Virus record (IMG/VR): IMGVR_UViG_3300047409_000848
Span: 1-20,303 of that record
Origin: a virus
Direction: 5' to 3' (one strand)
Length of the DNA: 20,303 nt
Below, one piece after another: positions 299-20,303 of this stretch. Both the position numbers and the translations under genes were made by a program. The notes under the pieces were generated by a model. The model searched no databases, was not told the DNA's origin, and saw nothing but the letters and a program-made list of their open reading frames with translations. The stretch's first letter is position 1. Every line of letters begins with the position of its first letter.

Positions 299-1189
299 TC
301 AGGCGACGCGGATGATCTGGTTCACATTGAGGAAGGGCTGCAGGTTGTTGTGGGAGGCGCCGCCGCCAGCGGATTTGACTCTCCCTGCCTGGTTGGTGCT
401 GGTGTTGTTCGTGACGCCGCCGATCCCAGCCTGCGCCACCGGGAAGGCCGATCCGGCAACTCCAGAAGCGACCCCAAGTTCGTGTTCATGCGCCGGGATC
501 TCCGACGTGCTCAGCGTGTGGCGCTCCTCGCCGCCCGCACCGCCGAGCCGCTGCGGTTCAGTGCTGATCCGCCCGGCATCAGAACCGCCCATGTCGTCGG
601 GTGCCACATGGACACGCCCCTTGGAGTCCGGCAGGTTGAAGGTGGTCGATTCGTCGCCCACGCCGTAGGGCGCGACGACGAAAGCGCCGCCGGTTCCGGT
701 GCTGCTAGCCGTTTTGCTTAGGGTGATTTCGGTCCCGGAGTTGACAGTTTCAATCGTCGTCCCGGCCTGGATGCCCGTGCCGCTGATCGGCATCCCCGCC
801 TTCATGCCGGTGGTCGACGGGATCGATTTCATCGCTTTCGAGCCGCTGGTCCGGTTACCGGTGGTGCTGATCGTCAGGCGTTCAAAGAGGGTTTTGTAGG
901 TGGTGCGGGAGATGGCCGTGCCGTCGCACCATTTGAATTCCTGGCCTTCGACGGTGGGCAGACTGACCCCGGGCCACGTCTTCATCTCCCCGACCAGGGT
1001 GCCGCCGCCATCTTTGCCAGCCGGACCCTGAGGACCGGTGGCTCCCGTTTCGCCGGAGTCTCCTTTGTCGCCTTTCGGGCCTTCCGGCCCCGGCGGCCCA
1101 CCGGCCAAGGGCGTCGCCGGTGCCGCCAGCTTGCGCCGCGATAGCCGCTCGAGCACGCCCTCGATCGTCACCTTCCGCTGGACGATCAT
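299..1189 (-). CDS. Collagen-like tail fibre with phage tail collar domain
   Basis: A 296-residue fibre protein. After about 30 basic residues there are ten uninterrupted Gly-X-Y triplets (residues about 31-60), the signature of a collagen-like trimeric rod. Next comes a phage tail collar domain (PF07484 type): a GQEFKWCDG stretch near residue 85, an R-x-x-Y-x-x-L element just after, FNLPDSKGRV near 185, a GGEERHTLS...EIPAHEH segment near 220, and a C-terminal HNNLQPFLNVNQIIRV. Between the two halves of the collar domain (about 115-165) sits a Gly/Thr/Ser-rich insert with a SGTGIQAGTTI motif of the kind found in many phage fibres. The ATG overlaps the upstream stop as ATGA. It probably acts at the tail tip in host contact. 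The domain calls are strong; the receptor role is inference. Confidence 0.9.
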   Translation of the reverse strand: MIVQRKVTIEGVLERLSRRKLAAPATPLAGGPPGPEGPKGDKGDSGETGATGPQGPAGKDGGGTLVGEMKTWPGVSLPTVEGQEFKWCDGTAISRTTYKTLFERLTISTTGNRTSGSKAMKSIPSTTGMKAGMPISGTGIQAGTTIETVNSGTEITLSKTASSTGTGGAFVVAPYGVGDESTTFNLPDSKGRVHVAPDDMGGSDAGRISTEPQRLGGAGGEERHTLSTSEIPAHEHELGVASGVAGSAFPVAQAGIGGVTNNTSTNQAGRVKSAGGGASHNNLQPFLNVNQIIRVA

Positions 1190-2442
1190 TCTTCGACCAC
1201 TTCCGGCACGAGCAAAGTGATCGCTTCGCCCGTAATCCCTTCCGATTTCACCTCGGGGGAGCAGCTGAGCTTGACGACGACCTGGCCGGATTCCAGCTCG
1301 GTCACCACGGCGTCAGTGATCCGTCCGGTGAGTTTCAGCGGCTCGACCGGATTGCCCTCGACGTTGATCGATTCCCCGGCTCCGTCCACGTCGACCGCCC
1401 CCAGATAGGCGTGACAGGCGATCATGTCCCCGACCCAATAGTCGATGCCGAACCGGGGTGGCACGCCGTCGCTCCCAAGCACCTCGTCCTCAGCCTGCTC
1501 CGGCGCCGCGGTGAAGTCGAAGAACGGGATCGGATAAGCGTTCGCGGCAATGATGCCTTCCGCGTGGGCGCGCAGGGTGGCGACTTCGGTCACGTCTTCG
1601 AGCTGGACGACCTTCTCGAAGACACCGTATTTCGCGATTGAGGCGGCGTGTTCGGCGACGTAGCTGGGGAAGGTGGCGAGGGGGTTTTCTTCTTCGCCTT
1701 CTTCGTTCAGCGGTGCCCCGACGACGACGACCCGGTTCACGATCCCGTCGCCACCGGGCGCGTGGATGAAGTTCGAGGCGGTGTAGGGAGCGGCGCCGTG
1801 GACGAAGACGACGTCGGCGCTCTTATCGCTGCCCTGGCGCGGGTGGAAGGTATTAAGGCGAGCGAGCGTGTCGGTGCCCTCCCCTGCCACCGGCTCCAAC
1901 TCGAAGTCCGGCCCGCCAATCACCTCCGACATCTCGACCAGGGCGGCGCCGACTTCCTTGCCCGGCACGTAGGTCCGGTCTCGGTCGACCGAGACCGGGA
2001 GTGAGCCTTCCACGATGCCGTGATCGTTCGCCGCGACCCCGGAGACCAGCGACCACATGATCTGGGACTGGTCGATAGCGGCGAGGACGACTGGGTTCCA
2101 CACGGCGCCGACGGCGTTGCGGATCAGCGAGCGTTCGAGCTGGAAAAAGGGGTCGACCGCGTTGAGGCCCAGTTGCTCTTCGTCTTCGTTGCTGCCCTGT
2201 TCGGGGATGATTATGCGGGCGATCAGCAGCGGTAGGGAGAATTCTTCCGGCCCCTTCAGGGTGACCCGGAGCAGCGTCTCGACCGCTGTGGCCAGTTGGT
2301 AGGCAGAGTCCTCAAGGCTCAACGGGCAGAAGCCGCGGCGGGGCGCGTTGAGACCGACTTCCACCCACCCTCCCGGCCGACGGTTGTCAAGCCGCGTTAG
2401 GACGTTCTGATTCCTGTCGCACAGCTCAAAGTCGAGATGCAT
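1186..2442 (-). CDS. Tail tip protein, Siphovirus ReqiPepy6 gp37-like
   Basis: A 418-residue protein whose opening (LDFELCDRNQNVLTRLDN, then a GGWVEVGLNAPR segment) and late strands resemble the Siphovirus ReqiPepy6 Gp37-like family (PF14594), found in actinobacterial siphophages after the distal tail protein. Such proteins build the tail tip or baseplate hub and are thought to do the job of the tail-associated Tal protein. The middle is rich in Val/Ile strands and acidic loops (for example EEGEEE near residue 250) and there is no membrane segment. The ATG start at 2442 is preceded by a strong GGAGAGGAGG site, so its translation does not depend on coupling. That fits its position just past an opposite-strand gene. 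Family assignment is from remembered motifs, moderately sure; a tail structural role is nearly certain from context. Confidence 0.8.
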   Translation of the reverse strand: MHLDFELCDRNQNVLTRLDNRRPGGWVEVGLNAPRRGFCPLSLEDSAYQLATAVETLLRVTLKGPEEFSLPLLIARIIIPEQGSNEDEEQLGLNAVDPFFQLERSLIRNAVGAVWNPVVLAAIDQSQIMWSLVSGVAANDHGIVEGSLPVSVDRDRTYVPGKEVGAALVEMSEVIGGPDFELEPVAGEGTDTLARLNTFHPRQGSDKSADVVFVHGAAPYTASNFIHAPGGDGIVNRVVVVGAPLNEEGEEENPLATFPSYVAEHAASIAKYGVFEKVVQLEDVTEVATLRAHAEGIIAANAYPIPFFDFTAAPEQAEDEVLGSDGVPPRFGIDYWVGDMIACHAYLGAVDVDGAGESINVEGNPVEPLKLTGRITDAVVTELESGQVVVKLSCSPEVKSEGITGEAITLLVPEVVEE

Positions 2443-2493: not shown

Positions 2494-2835
2494 ATGGCTG
2501 AACGCTTGCCGAGTGAAGACATCGTTGTCTCTGCGCCTATGAGCTTCCACGGATCGGCGTCGCGGATCTGGAAATTGACCGAGGGCGCCGAGGAGAGATG
2601 GGGTCGCGTGATCCTCGGCGCGCTGGCCGTGGTCCTAATCGCCGTCGCGTGGACGGTGATTCTGTGCTGGTACCTGCTCTGGGGCCTCTTCCTGGTGCCC
2701 TACCGCCTGATTCGACGCGGACAGCGGAAGCGGCAGCTCGAAGATGTCAGACATCGAGAGCTACTGGCCGCTACACAACACGGCCTCTCGCTGACTAAGC
2801 CCCCGCCAAGCGGAGTGGAAACCCCAAGCCGCTAG
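2494..2835 (+). CDS. Opposite-strand small membrane protein, probable moron
   Basis: The only plausible plus-strand gene in the window. From the ATG at 2494 it encodes 113 residues: a short N-terminus, an amphipathic stretch with SRIWKL, then a long hydrophobic span (about residues 39-70, with WTVILCWYLLWGLFL) that could be one long or two short membrane helices, followed by a very basic RRGQRKRQ segment and a soluble C-terminus. By the positive-inside rule the basic tail should be cytoplasmic. The frame stays open upstream to 2437, but that extension overlaps the start of the divergent tail gene, and 2494 sits 8 bases after a TACCCT -10-like hexamer, suggesting a leaderless message. An ATG at 2539 (98 residues) is an alternative. 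It is wedged between two minus-strand tail genes and ends tail-to-tail, overlapping the propeller gene by 4 bases. Lone reverse genes in late operons are typical of lysogeny-expressed morons, such as superinfection exclusion factors. No family recognised; function unknown. Confidence 0.6.
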   Translation: MAERLPSEDIVVSAPMSFHGSASRIWKLTEGAEERWGRVILGALAVVLIAVAWTVILCWYLLWGLFLVPYRLIRRGQRKRQLEDVRHRELLAATQHGLSLTKPPPSGVETPSR

Positions 2836-3896
2836 TAGTACCCCTTCTCCCAACCGAAGTTAGCTACCGCTCCATAGGCCTGTTTCAGGCCCCAGCGGCC
2901 GATCGCGTCGGTAGCGGCGTCGGCCCAATAGATAACCCCGCTGCGGATCGCGACGTCTTCTGAAAAAGTGGGGCTCCTGAGAAACGAGGGTTCGACGCTG
3001 CTGCCGTCGAGTTTGGCGCGGCCGATCGCGCCAGCGTCAGCCCAGTAGATGTAGGTCGCGTCGACAGCTACACCGGTAGGACTACCAAGGCCCGCCGTGA
3101 TGAATTTTTTGTTCGGGCTGCTGCCGTCGAGTTTGGCGCGGCCGATCGCGCCAGCGTCAGCCCAGTAGATGTAGGTCGCGTCGACAGCTACGTCTGAGGG
3201 TAGGCCGCCTCCGGCGATGAAACCCGTATTGGGACCAGAAGCGTCGAGTTTGGCGCGGCCGATCGCGTTAAAGAATTTGTCAGCCCAGTAGATGTAGGTC
3301 GCGTCGACAGCTACACCGAGCGGTTCAACTGGCGCAGTCAAGAACCCCGCGTTCGGGCTGCTGCCGTCGAGTTTGGCGCGGCCGATCGCGCCAGCGGATA
3401 CCTGAGCGTAGTAGACGTAAGTTCCATCGACGGCTATCCCGCCTGGATCGCCCACCGTCGGATTTTTGAGCAATTGCGTGACGCTGCTGCCGTCGAGTTT
3501 GGCGCGGCCGACTTGGTTGACGGCGCCCCAGTAGATGTAGGTCGCGTCCGTGGTAAGGCGAGCTGGATTATTGACGGGGGAGATGAACTGTGGTTGGACT
3601 AGGTTGGCTTCAATCGCCAGATCATTCACTCCGGCCACGATCGGCGCCGTCGCCGTCCACAGCTCCAGGTCGTTGGGGTCCAGCCAAGCCGAGCGATCCA
3701 CTTCGTCCTGATCGCGCACCGTCCGCCGATACCAATCGAGGCGCAGATCCCCGCCTTCGTATTCAGCCGGCAGGTTGATCGTCAGCGTCTTCCCCGTAGT
3801 CTTGTTCCGCACGACCAGTTCGACTGCAGCTTCGCTTTCAGGAAGCTCCAAGTCGAGGATCGGCCCCCGCGAGTCGGTCGGAAGGATCAGGCTCAC
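2832..3896 (-). CDS. Tail protein with six-bladed YWTD-like beta-propeller
   Basis: A 354-residue protein. The first about 105 residues contain DLRLDWYRRTVRDQDEVDRSAW and a W-rich strand region and are probably the virion-attachment domain. Residues about 107-345 are six repeats of roughly 40-45 residues, each with a TYIYWAD-type strand followed by IGRAKLDGSS. This resembles the LDL-receptor class B (YWTD) and virginiamycin-B-lyase-like propeller blades, and six repeats is the right number for one closed propeller. The last blade is degenerate (VIYWADAATDAIGRWGL), as closing blades often are. The start is taken as the GTG at 3896 because it overlaps the upstream stop as GTGA; an upstream in-frame ATG at 4007 would overlap the previous gene by over 100 bases. 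Lying between the distal tail protein and the gp37-like hub, it is a good candidate for receptor or glycan binding. Fold and position are well supported; ligand unknown. Confidence 0.87.
   Translation of the reverse strand: MSLILPTDSRGPILDLELPESEAAVELVVRNKTTGKTLTINLPAEYEGGDLRLDWYRRTVRDQDEVDRSAWLDPNDLELWTATAPIVAGVNDLAIEANLVQPQFISPVNNPARLTTDATYIYWGAVNQVGRAKLDGSSVTQLLKNPTVGDPGGIAVDGTYVYYAQVSAGAIGRAKLDGSSPNAGFLTAPVEPLGVAVDATYIYWADKFFNAIGRAKLDASGPNTGFIAGGGLPSDVAVDATYIYWADAGAIGRAKLDGSSPNKKFITAGLGSPTGVAVDATYIYWADAGAIGRAKLDGSSVEPSFLRSPTFSEDVAIRSGVIYWADAATDAIGRWGLKQAYGAVANFGWEKGYY
2997..3071. repeat. 75-bp direct repeat, copy 1 (propeller blade)
   Basis: Identical over 75 bases to 3117-3191, exactly 120 bases (40 codons) away. 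It covers the YIYWADAGAIGRAKLDGSS core of one blade. A shared core of about 20 bases (gtcgagtttggcgcggccga) recurs at about 3006, 3126, 3243, 3366 and 3492. Confidence 0.95.
3117..3191. repeat. 75-bp direct repeat, copy 2 (propeller blade)
   Basis: Perfect copy of 2997-3071, 120 bases away, inside the same gene. DNA identity including wobble positions implies recent duplication or gene conversion between blades. The upstream flank (3111-3156) is in turn shared with 3351-3396. Confidence 0.95.
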
Positions 3897-4447
3897 CAGG
3901 AAACCTCCGTGTTGGTTTCTTTGACTTCGACGCTGTGGCTCTCGGTCTCCTCGTCGAAGTAACGTCGGTCGCTCATCCGCAGCCCGACCACAAAGGGCCG
4001 GTCCCATTGGGTCGTGCCCTGGACATCGACGATGTCGGCGGTCAGTGCCCGGGCCTCATAGAACTTCGCCGGCACCGCCGCGAACTCGGCCAGCAGTGGG
4101 TGCCAAGACACATCCATCCGCCCCTCGGTCTCCAGGCCGTCGAAGGCAGCGCTGAACATCGCCTCGGCTTCGCGTAGCTCGAGCAGAGATCGGGCTTTTA
4201 CTTCGCCCTCGTAGACCACCGATTTGCCACGGCGCCGGGAGAGGCGCGGCGTCTCCCGGTTCTGGCCGGGCGGGCGGTCGCGGTTGTCTTCCGCCTCGCC
4301 CGTACTACCGAGGCCGGTGATGCGCTGCAGCTTGAACCGGGGCCACACAGGCTCCCCGGCGTCGTCGTGGGCGCGTCCGAGCACGATCACTGGCCCATCC
4401 GCGCCCGGAGGCGTCCAGGCGTGGTGCCCCTCTATCTTGGCGATCAC
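3893..4447 (-). CDS. Distal tail (Dit)-like protein
   Basis: A 184-residue protein directly after the tape measure gene, the usual place of the distal tail protein that forms the hexameric ring joining tube and tip. It opens with strands and a GPVIVLGRAHDDAGEPVW segment. It then has an acidic/basic linker with a short Arg-rich stretch (LSRRRGKSVVYEG), and a second half of alternating strands and one helix (RSLLELREAEAMFSAAF). It ends in EVKETNTEVSW, a finish compatible with the Siphovirus-type tail component fold. The GTG start overlaps the tape measure stop as GTGA; the downstream propeller gene is joined in the same way. No family motif is decisive, so the Dit call rests mainly on position, size and likely strand content. 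It could alternatively be another upper tail-tip protein. Confidence 0.65.
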   Translation of the reverse strand: MIAKIEGHHAWTPPGADGPVIVLGRAHDDAGEPVWPRFKLQRITGLGSTGEAEDNRDRPPGQNRETPRLSRRRGKSVVYEGEVKARSLLELREAEAMFSAAFDGLETEGRMDVSWHPLLAEFAAVPAKFYEARALTADIVDVQGTTQWDRPFVVGLRMSDRRYFDEETESHSVEVKETNTEVSW

Positions 4448-6828
4448 CCGAGCGCCCCTTTCGCGCGAAGTTCACTGTCCCACTGAGCACGTGCGATACG
4501 CGGATCCGGCGAGCCAGTCCCCGGCGAGACGATCTTCACGTCGTTGTTGATGACGTTGCCGCCCCCGCCGCCGGCCAGAGGCGGTGCAGAGGCGCCGGCG
4601 CCCGCCGGGGCCGTGGCGCGGCCAGCCAAGGCTCGAAGGATACGCTGCGTCTCACCGGCGGTGTATATGTCGGCACCAGTCGGAACGAAGCGAAGCTCGG
4701 GGCCCTGCTCACCGACGAGACTAAGCGCCCCTTGGGGCATGTCCCGCACCCCGCTCGCGAAGCTCGGCAGCGACGGGTGTGGGATGTGAATGTCGATCGT
4801 GATGTCCGGGAGGGCGTCGTTGATCGCGTCCCAGATCGCCTTCGCGGCGGAGACGAGGCCACCGACCCCGGGCAGGCTCAGCACGAAGTTGATCCCGTCG
4901 GAGATGACGCCCTTGACCGCGTCCCAGATCCCTCGCGCCCGGCTCGCCAGGTCACCGGGCAGGCTCAGCACGAAGTTGATCCCGTCGGAGATGACGCCCT
5001 TTACGTCGCCCCACACGTTCCGCGCCCGGCCGGCCAGGTCGCCCGGCAGGCTCAACACGAAGCGGATCGCATCGGTGATCGCGCCCTTGACGGCGCTCCA
5101 GATCGACCGCGCCCGACTGGCGATATCCCCGGCGAAGCCGATGACGAACTTGATCGCGTCGGTGATGGCCGACTTGACGGAATTCCAGATATTGCGCGCC
5201 CGCTCGGTGATGTCGTCGGCGAAGCCGATGACGAACTTGATCGGCGTGGCGACCAGCCCCGTGATCTGGGCTACCACCCCGCCGACGAACTCGGCGGCGC
5301 CGGTGAAGGCGTCCTTGATCGCCTTGCCTACGTCGGAGAAGACGTCGCCCCATTTGCTGAAGGCAAGGGCGCGGTCGATGTCCTTCAGCCATTCGAGGAA
5401 GTCGCTGAACGCCTCAAGGATCTCGTTGAGGCCAGCGAGGATCGCAGCCGCCAGCGGAGCGAAGAACTCCCCGATCTGGAGCAGCACTTTCCCGACGTTG
5501 AGGATCAGCCGAGCGAGTTCGCGGGCGACAGGCCCGGTGTCCGTGAAAAATTCGTTGATCCTCTTCAGCCCGTCCTCGGAGCGCAGCCAGTCGGCAAGGT
5601 TGTGCGCGCCTTCGCCGAGCGACTCGACGATCGAGTCCCCGAACGGAGCAAACGCCTCGACGAAGGCCGCGACGAGGTCCGTCAGGCCACCCAGCAGCTC
5701 CCCCCAGGACTTCAGGGAGCCGACCATCCCGCCGATCACCTCGCGCAGCCCTTGGATATCCGAGGTCTTGTCGGCGATCGACTGGAGCCCGTCGGCCAGC
5801 CCCTCCATGCCCTTCACCAGGAACGGCATCGCCGCCACCGAGATGTTCTTCAGGATGTCGGAGAAGGCGCCGAAGCTCTCGGCGAACAGCGGCGTCAGCT
5901 TCGCCAGCGAGTCGATCGTGAACTCGAAGAACTTGCCCCACTGCGGCGAGGAGAACTGCTCGCCCAGGAGGCGGAGCGCGTCGCCGCCGGCTTTGCCGAG
6001 GTTCGTAAATGCCGGCCCCAGCTCATCGATCATCGGCGTCAGCTCGCTGATCGCGTCGGAGATGCCGCCGAAGAGGGCATCGGCACCGCCGGCCGTCGCG
6101 TCCTTGAAGACATCGGCCAGTTCGGAGACGTTTTCCTTCAGCTCATAAGCCGCCGTCCCAACGGTTTCCGCCTCCTCCTTGAAGTTGGCGATGGCGCCAA
6201 CGGCGAGGGCGATCCCCGCGGGCAGGGTCGAGAGGAAGGCGACCCCCAGCGCAACCAGGCCGCCGACCGCGCTCCCGGCCGATGCGACCACCGCCAAGAG
6301 CTGGCCGGCGACGGCGACCAGGGCGGCGATCACGAACGGCGCAGCGACGGCGATGGCCCGCAGGCTCACACCGAAGATCGACGCCCCCTGGAACGCCTCG
6401 CCGATGCCGCCGATGAAGGAGGCGATGCCTCCGCTCGAAGCCTGCGAGGTCGCCACGTCGAGCCGATCGATCTGCCCGGTGAGGGCGCCGATTTTCTCGA
6501 CGATCCCCCGCCGAACATCGACGTCGACCGTCACGTCCTCGCCGTCGATCCGGTCGAGCTCTGCCTGTAGGACCGCGATGTCCGACTGCGCTTTCGCGAT
6601 CAGGACGTTCACCTCGGCCGTGGCGTCTTCAGCCGAAAACTCCGTCAGCCGAGCTTCCAGCTCCTCTAGGTTCGCCCGGGCCGACGCCGTATTGACGTCG
6701 ACTTCCGCTTCAGCGGTCTCGCGCCCGAACAAGGCGAGATCTCGAGATATGTCCGCCAATGCGCGCTGGGCGTCATCCGGATCCCCTGAGATCTGGAGCA
6801 AGAGGTTCGCAACGCTCAGGCCGCCCAC
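4444..6828 (-). CDS. Tape measure protein
   Basis: A 794-residue protein, the longest gene in the window, placed after the frameshifted chaperone pair. It would fix tail length and is expected to leave the tube at DNA ejection. Residues about 15-120 are Ala/Glu/Asp-rich helices (coiled coil). About 150-220 is a long hydrophobic Ala/Val/Gly region with probable membrane-spanning segments. About 220-520 is helical. Residues about 533-655 hold four tandem 29-residue repeats with a conserved Trp (core RAR-x-x-W-x-x-VK) plus a degenerate fifth. After it come PHPSLPSFASG and an Ala/Gly-rich C-terminus with a GEQGPEL motif, common near the end of actinophage tape measures. The start is a GTG preceded by a GAAAGGA site five bases away. 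No lytic transglycosylase or peptidase motif was seen. Confidence 0.95.
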   Translation of the reverse strand: MGGLSVANLLLQISGDPDDAQRALADISRDLALFGRETAEAEVDVNTASARANLEELEARLTEFSAEDATAEVNVLIAKAQSDIAVLQAELDRIDGEDVTVDVDVRRGIVEKIGALTGQIDRLDVATSQASSGGIASFIGGIGEAFQGASIFGVSLRAIAVAAPFVIAALVAVAGQLLAVVASAGSAVGGLVALGVAFLSTLPAGIALAVGAIANFKEEAETVGTAAYELKENVSELADVFKDATAGGADALFGGISDAISELTPMIDELGPAFTNLGKAGGDALRLLGEQFSSPQWGKFFEFTIDSLAKLTPLFAESFGAFSDILKNISVAAMPFLVKGMEGLADGLQSIADKTSDIQGLREVIGGMVGSLKSWGELLGGLTDLVAAFVEAFAPFGDSIVESLGEGAHNLADWLRSEDGLKRINEFFTDTGPVARELARLILNVGKVLLQIGEFFAPLAAAILAGLNEILEAFSDFLEWLKDIDRALAFSKWGDVFSDVGKAIKDAFTGAAEFVGGVVAQITGLVATPIKFVIGFADDITERARNIWNSVKSAITDAIKFVIGFAGDIASRARSIWSAVKGAITDAIRFVLSLPGDLAGRARNVWGDVKGVISDGINFVLSLPGDLASRARGIWDAVKGVISDGINFVLSLPGVGGLVSAAKAIWDAINDALPDITIDIHIPHPSLPSFASGVRDMPQGALSLVGEQGPELRFVPTGADIYTAGETQRILRALAGRATAPAGAGASAPPLAGGGGGNVINNDVKIVSPGTGSPDPRIARAQWDSELRAKGALG
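4868..4914. repeat. 47-bp direct repeat in tape measure gene, copy 1
   Basis: Identical over 47 bases to 4955-5001, 87 bases (29 codons) away, matching the protein repeat period. It encodes part of the SDGINFVLSLPG segment. Confidence 0.9.
4955..5001. repeat. 47-bp direct repeat in tape measure gene, copy 2
   Basis: Perfect copy of 4868-4914. A related pair with the same 87-base spacing is at about 5131 and 5218 (ggcgaagccgatgacgaac), so the whole 4868-5245 block is a tandem array of 29-codon units in two sequence subtypes. Confidence 0.9.
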
Positions 6829-11014: not shown

Positions 11015-11436
11015 CAGCGGCAGCGCCGCCGCGTCCCGCCGCTCATCCGCGCCGTGTTGCGGACGAGGCCCGACTGGTTCAGCAGCGCGGCGCCCAGCTC
11101 CCCGAAGGCCGGCCCGTAGAAGCCGCTCACGCTCACGTCGCCGGAGCTGAAGCGCGCGCGCTGGCGGGAGGCGACGTCGGGGTCGCGGAAGATCACCGCG
11201 GCGACCTCGATCGTGGCGCCGGCCAGCTTCTCCAGCCGCCAGGGCTTGATCGACTCGTCCTCGACGTCGATCTTGCGCCCGGTCTCCTCGTTGATCGGCC
11301 AGACGCCCAGCCGCTCGTCGACCAGAGTCTCGGCTTCGACCAGAAGCTCGACCGCTTCCTCGTCGGGCAGCACCTCTTTGGCGACCTTCAGCTTTTTGCG
11401 CAGCGCCTCGGCGGTCGCGTAGTAGGGCTCGGCCAT
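11014..11436 (-). CDS. Head-tail adaptor (connector) protein
   Basis: A 140-residue mostly helical protein beginning MAEPYYATAEALRKKLKV, with a helix (LPDEEAVELLVEAETLVDERLG) and a KPWRLEKLAGATIEVAAVIF segment. This matches the pattern of gp6/gp15-type head-tail connectors that bind the portal ring. The N-terminal 'Y-A-T-x-E-x-L' start is common in that family. The ATG overlaps the stop of the glycosyltransferase gene (TGATG), which ties the modification cassette translationally to head completion. A longer in-frame start upstream lies entirely inside that other gene and is rejected. Confidence 0.72.
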   Translation of the reverse strand: MAEPYYATAEALRKKLKVAKEVLPDEEAVELLVEAETLVDERLGVWPINEETGRKIDVEDESIKPWRLEKLAGATIEVAAVIFRDPDVASRQRARFSSGDVSVSGFYGPAFGELGAALLNQSGLVRNTARMSGGTRRRCR

Positions 11437-12122
11437 CAGGTCTCCTCGATCTCGGCGAGCAGCGCTCGCATCTGCTTCGGCTTCTGAATGGCGCGGACGT
11501 ATCGCTTGCGCAGCGCGGCGTTCTCCTTGTTGCCGATGAAGCGGTTGATCCGGGGTGCCGGCGGGTGCCAGAGGTGGATCAGCGGAGCAGCGCCGGCCCA
11601 CGGCTTCCCGACCAGCGTCAGCATCGCGTCGCGCCAGGAAGCGTCCTCCCCACCCCAGCCGGTGAAGCGCGGGTCGAAGGGGACCTCGAGCAGCACGTTG
11701 CGGCGCACCACCACGATCCCGCCGCCGTGGATGCCGTTGTAGGGGCCGTCGCCGTTGGTCTCGCATCTCTCCACCTCCAACGCGAGCGGGTCGCGGCACC
11801 CGGCGAGCAGGTAGCGCGTGGACTTCTCAGTCAGCCGGTGGACGGTCTTGTGCGGGACGGCCCAGGGTGCACCGGCCTCGACGGCAGCAATCGCGTCAGC
11901 GATGCCCTCGGTCCAACAGTCGGCGTCGGCAATGACGACGATCGGGTCGGCGCTCGCGATCTCGCTGCGGATCGCCGCGCCCTTGCTCCAGGGGCCGTCC
12001 CGCATCCAGCAGTTGCGCCAGTCGAGGTCGAGCTGTAGATCGAACCAGCGATCCGCCACCCAGTGAAGCGCCCGCTCCCGGTGCCGATCGCCAGCACGCC
12101 ACGGCACCAGCACAGTCGCCAT
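11436..12122 (-). CDS. Glycosyltransferase, GT-A fold
   Basis: A 228-residue protein. It opens MATVLVPWRAGDRHRERALHW, typical of GT2/GT27-like enzymes. IADADC near 64-69 supplies the D-x-D metal/nucleotide-sugar motif, and GWGGED at 155-160 is the C-terminal galactosyltransferase-type motif that holds the catalytic Asp/Glu. LIHLWHPP after it offers a possible metal-binding His. The enzyme should transfer a sugar from a nucleotide donor to an unknown acceptor in the cytoplasm. There are no membrane segments. It overlaps the bidomain glycosyltransferase upstream and the head adaptor downstream, both as TGATG. The glycosyltransferase call is strong; sugar and acceptor are unknown, though a virion protein is a reasonable guess from context. 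Confidence 0.85.
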   Translation of the reverse strand: MATVLVPWRAGDRHRERALHWVADRWFDLQLDLDWRNCWMRDGPWSKGAAIRSEIASADPIVVIADADCWTEGIADAIAAVEAGAPWAVPHKTVHRLTEKSTRYLLAGCRDPLALEVERCETNGDGPYNGIHGGGIVVVRRNVLLEVPFDPRFTGWGGEDASWRDAMLTLVGKPWAGAAPLIHLWHPPAPRINRFIGNKENAALRKRYVRAIQKPKQMRALLAEIEET

Positions 12123-13444
12123 CAGTACCCCCGCCCTGCCTGCTCCAGGCCAATGTGTTGGACCCGGGGTTCGTCCTCGATCGCGCCGAGGATGCCGGCG
12201 CGCGCACGCGGGTCAGCGAAGACGGAGTGACCGAAGCGAAGCTCGGAACGGCGACCCTGCGGCCAGCGGTGCTCAGCGAGCAGCGACCGGCGGGTCAGCA
12301 TCGGGTTCATCGTCCAGTAGGCGCGGTGCTCGATCCAGCCGTTCCGCTGGGTGAAGGCGTCCGGGTTGGCCGCGATCACGCCGCCGGCCTCGATCTCAGG
12401 CTCGTACCAGGGCTGGCGCATGAGCGAGAGCTGCGCGAGGCCCTCGCGCTCGACGATCTCCTGCATCGCCAGCAGGTCGACCGGCTCGTTGAAGGTGAAG
12501 TCGTCCTCCAGCCAGAAGACCCACGGCTGCCCGCAGCCAAGCGCCTGCTCGATCGCCGCTGCCGTCGCCTTCGGGTAGCCGCCGCCACGAATCTGCTCCA
12601 CGTCCCAGCCGGGGTGCGCATCTTCGACCGCTTCGACGCGGCAGCGCGGCCCGTCCACGCAGACCAGCCGGCGCCCGATCGGGCCGGTCAGCATCTCCTC
12701 AGCAGAGGCGATCGTCGGCGCCAGAGTGTCCCGGTCGCCGGTGGTCAGGGCGACGACGGCAACCTGATCGCTCGACCGCGGCTCCGCGAGCAACCGGCGC
12801 ATCTCGAACTCGCGATGGGCGTTGGCAAGGTAGCGCTGCGTCAGCCTGAGCGCCTGCCGGTGTAGCGGGGAGTTGCGGTCGTGGTGGGGCGAGGCGGCGT
12901 GGTAGAGGTGCCAGTTCGCGCCGTCGAGCCGGCGGACACCGCCGAGGGCCCCACACGCGGCGTGGAAGGCTTCGTCCTCCCCTCCCCAGCCCTCGAAACG
13001 CTCGTCGAACCCGCCGACGGCGTCCCAGAGGGCGCGAGGCACGATCACACAGCACGAGACGCGGTTGCGTTCGCGGGCGGTGACCCACGGCTCCCAGGTG
13101 CCTATGTGGCCGTCGATGATCGCCCGCGTCCCCACCTCGGAGAGCATGTTGCGCAGCTTGTAGGGGAGGACAAGGGCACCGGTCTCCTCGGCCAGCTCGA
13201 TCCCGGAGATGACCTGCTCGGCGTCGAGGATCGTGTCGGAGTCGAGGATCACCGCTAAGTCCCACTCGCCCTCTGCGGCGCGGTTGATCGCGGCGGAGCG
13301 GTTGAAGAACCCATCGCCCTCGTGGTGGCCCTCGAAGATCTGTAGCGCTGGCAGCTCAGCCTCCCAGTGGCGCCGGCAGTAGGCCCAGAGGCGGTCGCGC
13401 TCACTGCCGTCGGCGAGCCGAGGGACGACGATGCGGGCCTTCAT
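12122..13444 (-). CDS. Bidomain glycosyltransferase (two fused GT-A domains)
   Basis: A 440-residue protein. Domain 1 (about 1-220) starts MKARIVVPRLADGSERDRLW, has D-S-D at 68-70 in LAVILDSDTIL and GWGGED at 152-157, the same two motifs as the neighbouring single-domain enzyme. Domain 2 (about 225-440) starts afresh with VAVVALTTGDRDTL, a typical first strand of a family-2-like enzyme, and has WLEDDF at 311-316 as its D-D motif. Two start-like strands and two acidic motifs point to two catalytic domains in one chain. The ATG at 13444 overlaps the methyltransferase stop as ATGA; the in-frame upstream extension lies inside that gene and is rejected. Each domain could add a different sugar. Fusion is inferred from internal layout, not from alignment. 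Confidence 0.82.
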   Translation of the reverse strand: MKARIVVPRLADGSERDRLWAYCRRHWEAELPALQIFEGHHEGDGFFNRSAAINRAAEGEWDLAVILDSDTILDAEQVISGIELAEETGALVLPYKLRNMLSEVGTRAIIDGHIGTWEPWVTARERNRVSCCVIVPRALWDAVGGFDERFEGWGGEDEAFHAACGALGGVRRLDGANWHLYHAASPHHDRNSPLHRQALRLTQRYLANAHREFEMRRLLAEPRSSDQVAVVALTTGDRDTLAPTIASAEEMLTGPIGRRLVCVDGPRCRVEAVEDAHPGWDVEQIRGGGYPKATAAAIEQALGCGQPWVFWLEDDFTFNEPVDLLAMQEIVEREGLAQLSLMRQPWYEPEIEAGGVIAANPDAFTQRNGWIEHRAYWTMNPMLTRRSLLAEHRWPQGRRSELRFGHSVFADPRARAGILGAIEDEPRVQHIGLEQAGRGY

Positions 13445-14088
13445 CGGTGCCCGAAGTGCGCCCACGCGCCGGGGTGGATGACGGGACGCGGCGCCTCGTG
13501 AGCGAGGTCGAACCGCGAGGAGGCGACGAAGATGTTCTGGCGATACCACCAGCAGACCTGCTCGTCGTACCAGAGATCCCACCGGAGCTGATCCGAGCAG
13601 GAGAAACCGTTGGCGAGGACGAGGTCGACCCAGTAAGGCGGCCACTGCTCGTTCAGGTGTCCGGTGCCGCCCTGCCCGGGGACGGCGGCGGAGAAAAGGA
13701 TGGTGTGCGAAAGGCCGCACAGCTCGGCGATGAAGGTCTCGGCGCGCTCGGGTGGCAGGTGCTCCGCCACCTCCAGGCACACAGCGAGGTCGAAGTCGTG
13801 CTCGAAGCTCGGCAGCGTGTCCGTCAGGTCGACGTTGCGCGCCGGAATCAGCGGCTCGGGATGGCAATCGAGGCCCAGCACCTCACAGCCGGCGTCCTCG
13901 AACGCCTTCCCCCACAGCCCCTCACCGCAGCCGACGTCGACCACGGTGGATAGGGAGAAGCGCTCAACCACCAGCGGCACGACAGCGGCGGCAGAGGACT
14001 GGCTCCCCTCGCGGATCGAGTCGAAGAACACGGGGGAGTACGACGAAGCGCCCCCGACGGCGCTGGGGCGGTCGGGGGCGCTGGTCAT
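13441..14088 (-). CDS. SAM-dependent methyltransferase (class I)
   Basis: A 215-residue Rossmann-fold methyltransferase. Motif I is VVDVGCGEG at 49-57, followed by an acidic strand end (VLGLDCHPE), then FDLAVCLEVAEHLP (motif IV-like) and a HLNEQWPPYW segment near 145. Such class-I enzymes with 'EVAEHL' act on small molecules or sugars more often than on DNA, and no DPPY/NPPY DNA-amino-methyltransferase motif is present. It starts two bases after the major capsid stop and overlaps the bidomain glycosyltransferase, so the three genes form one cassette. The likely job is O-methylation of a transferred sugar or of a virion protein; the substrate is inference. An end-of-chain W/H-rich tail (HPGAWAHFGHR) is unusual. 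Confidence 0.87.
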   Translation of the reverse strand: MTSAPDRPSAVGGASSYSPVFFDSIREGSQSSAAAVVPLVVERFSLSTVVDVGCGEGLWGKAFEDAGCEVLGLDCHPEPLIPARNVDLTDTLPSFEHDFDLAVCLEVAEHLPPERAETFIAELCGLSHTILFSAAVPGQGGTGHLNEQWPPYWVDLVLANGFSCSDQLRWDLWYDEQVCWWYRQNIFVASSRFDLAHEAPRPVIHPGAWAHFGHR

Positions 14089-19544: not shown

Positions 19545-19878
19545 GGCGTCCAAACCTCCGTAGAAACCGCGAGACCGGGTTCCGCAGCGCGTCCCCCACC
19601 GTTGAAACCTTGCGTCGCTCCAGCTCAGCGGCGGCGAGGAGCGAGACCTTTGCGTTCGCCCTCTGCTCCTCCGCCCGTCGAGCTTTGGCGAGCTGACGGG
19701 CTTTGCGGCGGTTGCCCGCCATCGAGGAGACGGCCAGGCGGTCGCGCCGCTCGGCGTCCCTGCCGAACATCTCGGCCTCCCAACGAAGCCAGTCAGCGGT
19801 CTTCTCCTTCCCCCTCGGGGACGCGGCGACCATGCGCAGCGCTCGATCCGGGGAGAGGTGAGCGACGGCGTCGGTCAT
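19537..19878 (-). CDS. Small basic hypothetical protein
   Basis: A 113-residue helical protein rich in Arg and Ala (RDAERRDRLAVSSMAGNRRK, then QLAKARRAEEQRANAK), ending in RFLRRFGRRG. I do not recognise it. It overlaps the basic protein upstream by four bases (ATGA) and the small terminase by eight, so the three form one translational unit. Its basic charge and position suggest DNA contact during packaging, possibly as an accessory or alternative small terminase subunit. That is inference only. Confidence 0.65.
   Translation of the reverse strand: MTDAVAHLSPDRALRMVAASPRGKEKTADWLRWEAEMFGRDAERRDRLAVSSMAGNRRKARQLAKARRAEEQRANAKVSLLAAAELERRKVSTVGDALRNPVSRFLRRFGRRG
19555..19559 (-). promoter_or_regulatory. 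Ribosome binding site deciding the small terminase start
   Basis: GGAGG on the minus strand. It is 10 bases from the GTG at 19544 but only one base from the in-frame TTG at 19553. The spacing favours GTG and a 203-residue product. Confidence 0.6.
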
Positions 19879-20303
19879 CGGCCCCGGCGCCTCGGGCGTG
19901 CACCGGAGGTGGCCTTGCGTGGCTTGACCGCTGGCCGTTTGGAGCTGGTCGACTTCGGCCCCTTCCCGCTGACCTTCGGGGCGCTCTTGGTCGTGGTGAC
20001 CTTTCCCCCGCGGTTGACGGTGGTGACTTTGCGGACCACTTTGCGGCCCTTCTTGACGCGGGTGATCGTCCGCGTCTTCTTGACGACGCGGTTGGCGCCC
20101 GAGCCCGTGGTCGTCTTCGAGACCTTGGCGGTTCGCTTCAAGCCGCCTTTCGTCTTGACGGTCGCCTTGCGCTTGGTCGAGGACGAGCCGGGAGTGGCAG
20201 CGCCGAACGGAGGAGTGGACCGGGGAGTGCGGGTGTGCGTCCGGGTGACCGAGCGCTTGCCGCCCTTGGCGCGGCCGACTCGTTTACGGGTGCGGGAAGC
20301 CAT
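19875..20303 (-). CDS. Histone H1-like lysine/arginine-rich protein
   Basis: A 142-residue protein with roughly 23 Arg and 24 Lys and no Asp or Glu at all. It has no visible globular domain: Lys/Arg are spaced by Thr, Ser, Pro, Ala and Gly, with a central stretch TITRVKKGRKVVRKVTTV and a C-terminus of PRRRGR, like the tails of histone H1 or bacterial HU/Hc1-like DNA-binding proteins. Non-specific DNA or RNA condensation is the natural expectation. Being first in a packaging cluster and overlapping the next gene (ATGA), it may bind or compact DNA for packaging, or be carried in the head. The ATG is the last three bases of the window, so a longer N-terminus outside cannot be excluded. Confidence 0.75.
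   Translation of the reverse strand: MASRTRKRVGRAKGGKRSVTRTHTRTPRSTPPFGAATPGSSSTKRKATVKTKGGLKRTAKVSKTTTGSGANRVVKKTRTITRVKKGRKVVRKVTTVNRGGKVTTTKSAPKVSGKGPKSTSSKRPAVKPRKATSGARPRRRGR

What the first reader, a model, noticed from the sequence alone, without database searches (positions are those of the whole stretch)
2832..3896. Six-bladed YWTD-like propeller as a tail-tip protein
Six TYIYWAD/IGRAKLDG repeats after a virion-type N-terminus, encoded between distal tail protein and tip hub. Such blades are familiar in bacterial surface and lyase-like proteins and in eukaryotic receptors, but a complete one as a siphophage tail component would be an unusual adhesin. It may have been captured from an actinobacterial host.
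Basis: partly seen in the sequence, partly recalled or inferred. Interest (0 to 1): 0.75.

Follow-up and report, generated by a model that had tools for sequence, protein, structure and literature searches.

The report
Phage tail-tip protein carrying a β-propeller
A soil-type bacterial virus carries, built into the ring protein at the tip of its tail, a six-bladed β-propeller of the kind known from animal LDL receptors and exported proteins of soil actinobacteria; it is most likely a swappable host-gripping module and was not found in any of about 50,000 catalogued phage genomes.

Summary
The ORF is on the minus strand (GTG at 3896, Shine-Dalgarno GGAGG) and encodes 354 aa with exactly six YWxD/GRAKLDG repeats (Pfam Ldl_recept_b 2e-13). 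AlphaFold2 gives a confident propeller (pLDDT mostly above 90) that matches six-bladed LRP/LDLR/nidogen/Pizza6 structures. The placement needs refining. The protein is best read as the second half of a split distal tail protein (Dit): ORF 3893-4447 is the Dit belt half, residues 1-103 plus the last ~16 residues are the Dit C-terminal (galectin-like) domain, and the propeller is inserted in the loop before its last strand. A related phage (G763) has one undecorated, fused Dit. L001 has a different ~150-aa domain in the same loop. L101 independently shows the split Dit with a six-repeat propeller (44% identical). This is an 'evolved Dit' with a new kind of decoration, probably displayed in six copies and used to bind the host surface. 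The nearest cellular relatives are secreted propellers of Thermoleophilia, so an actinobacterial source is plausible but unproven. In each phage some blades match at codon level far above expectation, which implies recent DNA-level blade copying. Virion presence and receptor are untested.

The parts
2832..3896 (-). Decorated Dit C-terminal half: 354-aa protein, galectin-like domain + inserted six-bladed propeller + last strand
3588..3896 (-). Residues 1-103: Dit C-terminal (galectin-like) domain, all strands but the last
   Evidence: 43-44% identity to L001 and L101; hhalign to plain Dit C-domains E=1.2e-4
2883..3566 (-). Residues 111-338: six-bladed YWTD-type beta-propeller insert
   Evidence: Pfam PF00058; AF2 pLDDT mostly >90; Foldseek to LRP6/LDLR/nidogen/Pizza6
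3447..3566 (-). Blade 1 (residues 111-150)
3324..3446 (-). Blade 2 (151-191)
3201..3323 (-). Blade 3 (192-232)
3081..3200 (-). Blade 4 (233-272)
2964..3080 (-). Blade 5 (273-311)
2883..2963 (-). Blade 6 (312-338); three strands, presumably closed by an N-terminal strand
   Evidence: closure by residues ~103-105 is inferred
2832..2882 (-). Residues 339-354 (AYGAVANFGWEKGYY) and stop: last strand of the Dit domain, conserved in L001 and L101
   Evidence: low pLDDT in the model
3893..4447 (-). Dit belt (N-terminal) half, 184 aa, overlapping the decorated half by 4 nt
   Evidence: 40.6% identity over 170 aa to the N half of the fused Dit of G763, E=1e-30; 3-sequence profile E=1e-30
1186..2442 (-). 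Tail-tip hub / Tal-type minor tail protein
   Evidence: phrog_1885 minor tail protein 1.7e-5; 59-63% identity to L001 hub
4444..6828 (-). Tape measure protein, upstream of the Dit pair
   Evidence: phrog_305 1.1e-23

Best explanation
The gene encodes the C-terminal half of a split distal tail protein (Dit), in which a six-bladed YWTD-type beta-propeller is inserted into the last loop of the Dit galectin-like domain. With the belt half (3893-4447) it would form the hexameric Dit ring at the tail tip, so six propellers would stand out around the tip and act as host-surface adhesins that strengthen or specify adsorption before the hub engages. The decoration is an exchangeable cassette, and its blades are remodelled by DNA-level copying within the gene. 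Shown computationally: the repeats, the propeller fold, the belt homology, the insert position, the module swap, a second phage with the same architecture. Inferred: Dit ring assembly from two chains, six-fold display, ligand binding, the nature of the receptor.
For: Propeller: Pfam PF00058 2.2e-13; PDB sequence hits are LRP2/4/6, nidogen, Pizza6; AF2 mean pLDDT 82.9, pTM 0.74, propeller mostly >90; Foldseek E down to 3e-14, target TM ~0.8 to six-bladed Pizza6, 0.76 to nidogen. Dit identity: the fused 316-aa Dit of G763 covers both ORFs; belt half E~1e-30; the domain flanking the insert matches plain Dit C-domains by hhalign, E=1.2e-4 over 94 columns on both sides of the insert; those Dit C-domains hit SPP1 Dit 2x8k residues 148-235 as best PDB hit (E=0.005); the L001 homologue model lists SPP1 Dit at ranks 3-4 (E 0.5). 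Gene order TMP-Dit-hub. Swap: L001 has a different insert in the same loop although its TMP and hub are 60% and 66% identical to L101. Recurrence: L101 has split Dit + six-repeat propeller + hub. Blade copying: most pairs among blades 1-5 share 80-94% of codons for identical residues, ~50% expected; between phages 44%. No histidine in the protein, against lyase-type catalysis. Precedents: evolved Dits (PMC7291167), phi11 gp45 (PMC4901313).
Against: No virion proteomics or binding data. The Dit-like C-domain assignment is modest by sequence: an HMM of the three sequences gives E=0.64 for the G763 Dit, although it ranks first of 3451 ORFs, and no Pfam Dit model matches. The last 18 residues are unmodelled (pLDDT ~28). 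A Dit on two chains is unusual and I recall no precedent. Propeller domains can also be scaffolds or enzymes.
Confidence: 0.68

Rival explanations
1. The propeller is a structural docking or scaffolding module at the tip that holds another tail component (for example the collagen/collar fibre encoded at 299-1189), not a host-binding domain.
For: YWTD propellers are generic protein-binding platforms; p2 and mycobacteriophage Dit domains anchor other baseplate proteins (PMC7291167, PMC13252515). A fibre gene lies two genes downstream.
Against: The insert is swapped for an unrelated domain in L001 and absent from the Dits of G763 and G093, while hub and TMP stay related, a pattern more typical of host-range modules. 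G763 has extra tailspike and lectin genes instead.
Confidence: 0.17
2. The ORF is an independent accessory tail protein with its own attachment domain; it is not part of Dit, and the belt ORF alone is the Dit.
For: Separate ORF in three phages; weak sequence similarity of its N-terminal domain to Dit C-domains. Some phages have belt-only Dits (lambda gpM, PMC7291167).
Against: Fused Dit of G763 covers belt and C-domain collinearly; hhalign aligns both sides of the insert to the Dit C-domain; overlapping stop/start codons in window and L101 suggest coupled expression.
Confidence: 0.13
3. The propeller is an enzyme (lyase or esterase-like) that modifies host surface polymers.
For: Vgb_lyase Pfam match 9.7e-8, below its curated cut-off; phage tail enzymes are common, including propeller sialidases.
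Against: No histidine anywhere in the protein; near-identical blades leave little room for an asymmetric active site; best matches are binding propellers.
Confidence: 0.07
4. Chimeric assembly or host gene mis-binned next to phage genes.
For: Single metagenomic contig; the propeller resembles bacterial exported proteins.
Against: Seamless in-frame fusion flanked by phage sequence on both sides; same architecture in an independent contig, L101, at 44% identity.
Confidence: 0.01

Closest known systems
Evolved Dit proteins (Lactobacillus, lactococcal, streptococcal siphophages; PMC7291167)
   Same: Dit at the tail tip with a foreign binding domain inserted in a loop of the peripheral galectin-like domain; decoration varies among relatives
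   Different: The known inserts are carbohydrate-binding modules on one-chain Dits; here the insert is a six-bladed YWTD propeller before the last strand, and the Dit is split into two ORFs
phi11 gp45 receptor-binding protein (five-bladed propeller; PMC4901313)
   Same: Beta-propeller in a siphophage adhesion device, with a cavity proposed to take GlcNAc
   Different: Five blades, no detectable sequence relation (absent hits), separate trimeric RBP with stem and tower, not part of Dit
Corndog Dit/DTP gp58 (PMC13252515)
   Same: Actinobacterial siphophage Dit with a large inserted domain, 6:6:3 core
   Different: Rossmann-like insert placed between the two Dit domains, single chain
Secreted YWTD/LDL-class-B-like propellers of Thermoleophilia (e.g. 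Solirubrobacter deserti, L006)
   Same: Same IGRAxLDGS / VAVDGTYxYW blade type, 40-53% identity
   Different: Bacterial, exported by signal peptide, fused to other domains; not on virions
LDL-receptor family / nidogen YWTD propellers and Pizza6 designed propeller
   Same: Fold and blade motif
   Different: Animal receptors or synthetic; ~20-27% identity

Membership tests
Distal tail protein (Dit) | Gene between tape measure and tip hub | tested here: met
   TMP 4444-6828, belt 3893-4447, this ORF, hub 1186-2442
Distal tail protein (Dit) | N-terminal belt domain | tested here: met
   Adjacent ORF 3893-4447 matches belt half of fused G763 Dit, E~1e-30; that the fused protein is a Dit rests on synteny and its C-domain
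Distal tail protein (Dit) | C-terminal galectin-like domain | tested here: inconclusive
   hhalign E=1.2e-4, prob 55%; SPP1 Dit at ranks 3-4 in Foldseek, E 0.5; no Pfam PF22768 match
Distal tail protein (Dit) | Hexameric ring in the virion | not testable with these tools
   Needs cryo-EM or virion proteomics
Evolved Dit | Foreign domain inserted in a loop of the Dit C-terminal domain, absent or different in relatives | tested here: met
   Propeller in window and L101, other domain in L001, none in G763 and G093 Dits; conditional on the C-domain being Dit-like
Evolved Dit | Insert binds host saccharide or surface | not testable with these tools
   No binding data
YWTD / LDL-receptor class B propeller | Six YWTD-type repeats over the Pfam cut-off | tested here: met
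   PF00058 50.9 bits, cut-off 21; six repeats
YWTD / LDL-receptor class B propeller | Closed six-bladed propeller fold | tested here: met
   AF2 model and Foldseek to Pizza6/nidogen/LDLR over ~245 columns; prediction only
Virginiamycin B lyase | Over curated cut-off and catalytic histidine (from memory) | tested here: not met
   31.6 bits against cut-off 50; no histidine
phi11 gp45-type propeller RBP | Detectable homology, stem-platform-tower trimer | tested here: not met
   No gp45 hit in sequence search of the PDB; no stem or tower regions in the ORF

The most novel reading that the evidence does not exclude
These phages run a self-diversifying adhesin. A propeller module of host type sits on a separately encoded, exchangeable half of Dit, and its binding surface is renewed by repeated copying of blades within the gene and by swapping the whole cassette, so that receptor specificity changes without touching the essential Dit ring.
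Probability: 0.2. Interest if true: 0.7.

Novelty: new variant of a known kind. Interest (0 to 1): 0.52.

Why it matters
It adds a large propeller scaffold to the list of domains a siphophage can hang on its Dit, shows a Dit split into a conserved ring half and an exchangeable decorated half, and gives a first lead on how phages of the little-cultured soil class Thermoleophilia may recognise their hosts. The near-identical blades offer a natural case of ongoing propeller remodelling in a binding protein.

Tried and rejected
Searches for the whole protein, its repeats and its N-terminus in viral contigs found nothing at first or only L001; the second propeller phage appeared only with a degenerate blade profile. 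tblastn of both propeller proteins against 50,697 phage records: no match. An N-terminal domain search in 399 Thermoleophilia genomes: none. A first hhalign with two-sequence profiles was uninformative and was superseded. AF2 of the L001 homologue was poor overall (pLDDT 43; only the N-terminal domain usable). Including the G763 Dit in the structure alignment misaligned it, so it was dropped. Host-contamination and lyase readings rejected (see rivals). A whole-propeller tree was not attempted because blade copying makes the register of blades unreliable.

Full report
Observation. Window ORF 2832-3896 lies on the minus strand, starts at a GTG with GGAGG eight bases upstream, overlaps the preceding ORF by GTGA and encodes 354 aa. 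Repeats begin at residues 119, 159, 200, 241, 281 and 320. The repeat pattern occurs six times, against at most one in 5000 shuffles, and Pfam Ldl_recept_b scores 50.9 bits against a cut-off of 21. The window is a 20.3-kb virus record with the late genes on the minus strand: large terminase, SU10-type major capsid protein, tape measure, hub and collagen/collar fibre.

Fold. PDB sequence relatives are LRP2, LRP4, LRP6, LDLR, nidogen and the designed six-bladed Pizza6. AlphaFold2 with 13 aligned locus sequences gave mean pLDDT 82.9 and pTM 0.74, with most of the propeller above 90. It shows five four-stranded blades and a sixth with three strands that needs one strand from elsewhere, probably residues 103-105 (inferred). 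Foldseek finds LRP/LDLR/nidogen/Pizza6 structures, with target-normalised TM ~0.8 to Pizza6. Viral structure hits are propellers at 8-17% identity.

What it is attached to. Related contigs decide this. G763 (L047/L079, capsid protein 76% identical) has a single 316-aa Dit between the tape measure region and the hub. [quoted passage not shown]). A profile of three such domains with the inserts removed aligns to plain Dit C-terminal domains with E=1.2e-4 (probability 55%) over 94 columns, including the segment after the insert. Those Dit domains have SPP1 Dit (2x8k, residues 148-235) as their best PDB hit (E=0.005), and one carries a Pfam SPP1_Dit match (L039, 1.4e-6). The model of the L001 homologue, whose N-terminal domain is the only confident part, lists SPP1 Dit at ranks 3-4, though not significantly (E 0.5). 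I therefore read the protein as a split Dit whose second half carries the propeller before its last strand. The belt assignment is firm; the C-domain assignment is moderate.

Module exchange. L001 has the same belt (44%), the same N-terminal domain (43%) and the same C-terminal WEKGY strand, but a different ~150-aa insert; a similar domain occurs in tail tubular proteins of two environmental phages at ~29%. L101 has belt, six-repeat propeller (44% to the window over the insert), WDRGYY strand and hub. L001 and L101 share 60% tape measure and 66% hub identity but carry different inserts. Two Thermoleophilia prophages with related hubs have a one-chain Dit, plain in G093 and with an inserted extra domain in G017.

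Blade evolution. Among blades 1-5 of the window most pairs use the same codon for the same residue 80-94% of the time, against ~50% expected from codon usage; L101 shows this for blades 2/3 and 2/4; between the two phages the figure is 44%, below expectation. Blades are thus being copied at the DNA level separately in each lineage. Third-position GC is lower in the propeller (0.72 in the window, 0.52 in L101) than in neighbouring genes (0.80-0.88), which suits a cassette with its own history.

Origin. The closest cellular proteins are exported propellers of Thermoleophilia: 21 of 149 genomes, best E 2e-34, 40-53% identity for the best hits. Polyangia have many, but more distant (best E 3e-25, mostly 28-39%). 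Hub relatives were found only in Thermoleophilia genomes. An actinobacterial source and a Thermoleophilia host are therefore plausible; neither is proven, and both phage propellers are too diverged for a recent capture.

Function. The known analogues are evolved Dits with carbohydrate-binding inserts in galectin-domain loops (PMC7291167), phi11 gp45 with a five-bladed propeller proposed to bind GlcNAc of teichoic acid, and the propellers of PRD1 P2 and PhiKZ gp131C (PMC4901313). Mycobacteriophage tips have six Dits per tail, and Corndog Dit carries a Rossmann-like insert (PMC13252515). By analogy the six propellers would be host-surface adhesins. A lyase role is unlikely: no histidine in the protein and a sub-threshold Vgb match.

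Novelty. No match to either propeller protein in 50,697 phage records, no PHROG above noise, and no paper found in this library that describes a propeller in a Dit. I score it a new variant of a known kind.

Noticed in passing
window 11436-14088 (-): Two glycosyltransferase genes (galactosyltransferase-like) and a SAM methyltransferase sit between the capsid gene and the head-completion genes; they may glycosylate virion proteins.
   Followed up: partly
window 4868-5243: Tape measure gene carries an 87-bp (29-aa) tandem repeat array.
   Followed up: no
window 19875-20303 (-): Very Lys/Arg-rich 142-aa protein at the contig end; no Pfam match at E 0.01.
   Followed up: no
window 299-1189 (-): Tail fibre with collagen-like stretch and phage collar / Gp10 C-terminal domains, next to the hub.
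   Followed up: no
L079 2986-6263: Closest relative phage has an 870-aa pectate-lyase-like tailspike and a 222-aa LamG lectin inserted between tape measure and Dit.
   Followed up: partly
L040 3497-4891 (-): Thermoleophilia prophage Dit (464 aa) with an extra, carbohydrate-binding-module-like domain between belt and C-terminal domain.
   Followed up: partly
L005 / genome G002: MAG named Bifidobacterium breve (TrH-03may19-71) is 71% GC in the locus read, 5 Mb and full of Thermoleophilia-type propellers; the name looks wrong.
   Followed up: no
window 2832-4447; L001 4130-5565; L101 7084-8756: All three phages with an insert have Dit split into two overlapping ORFs; the undecorated relative G763 has it fused.
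   Followed up: partly
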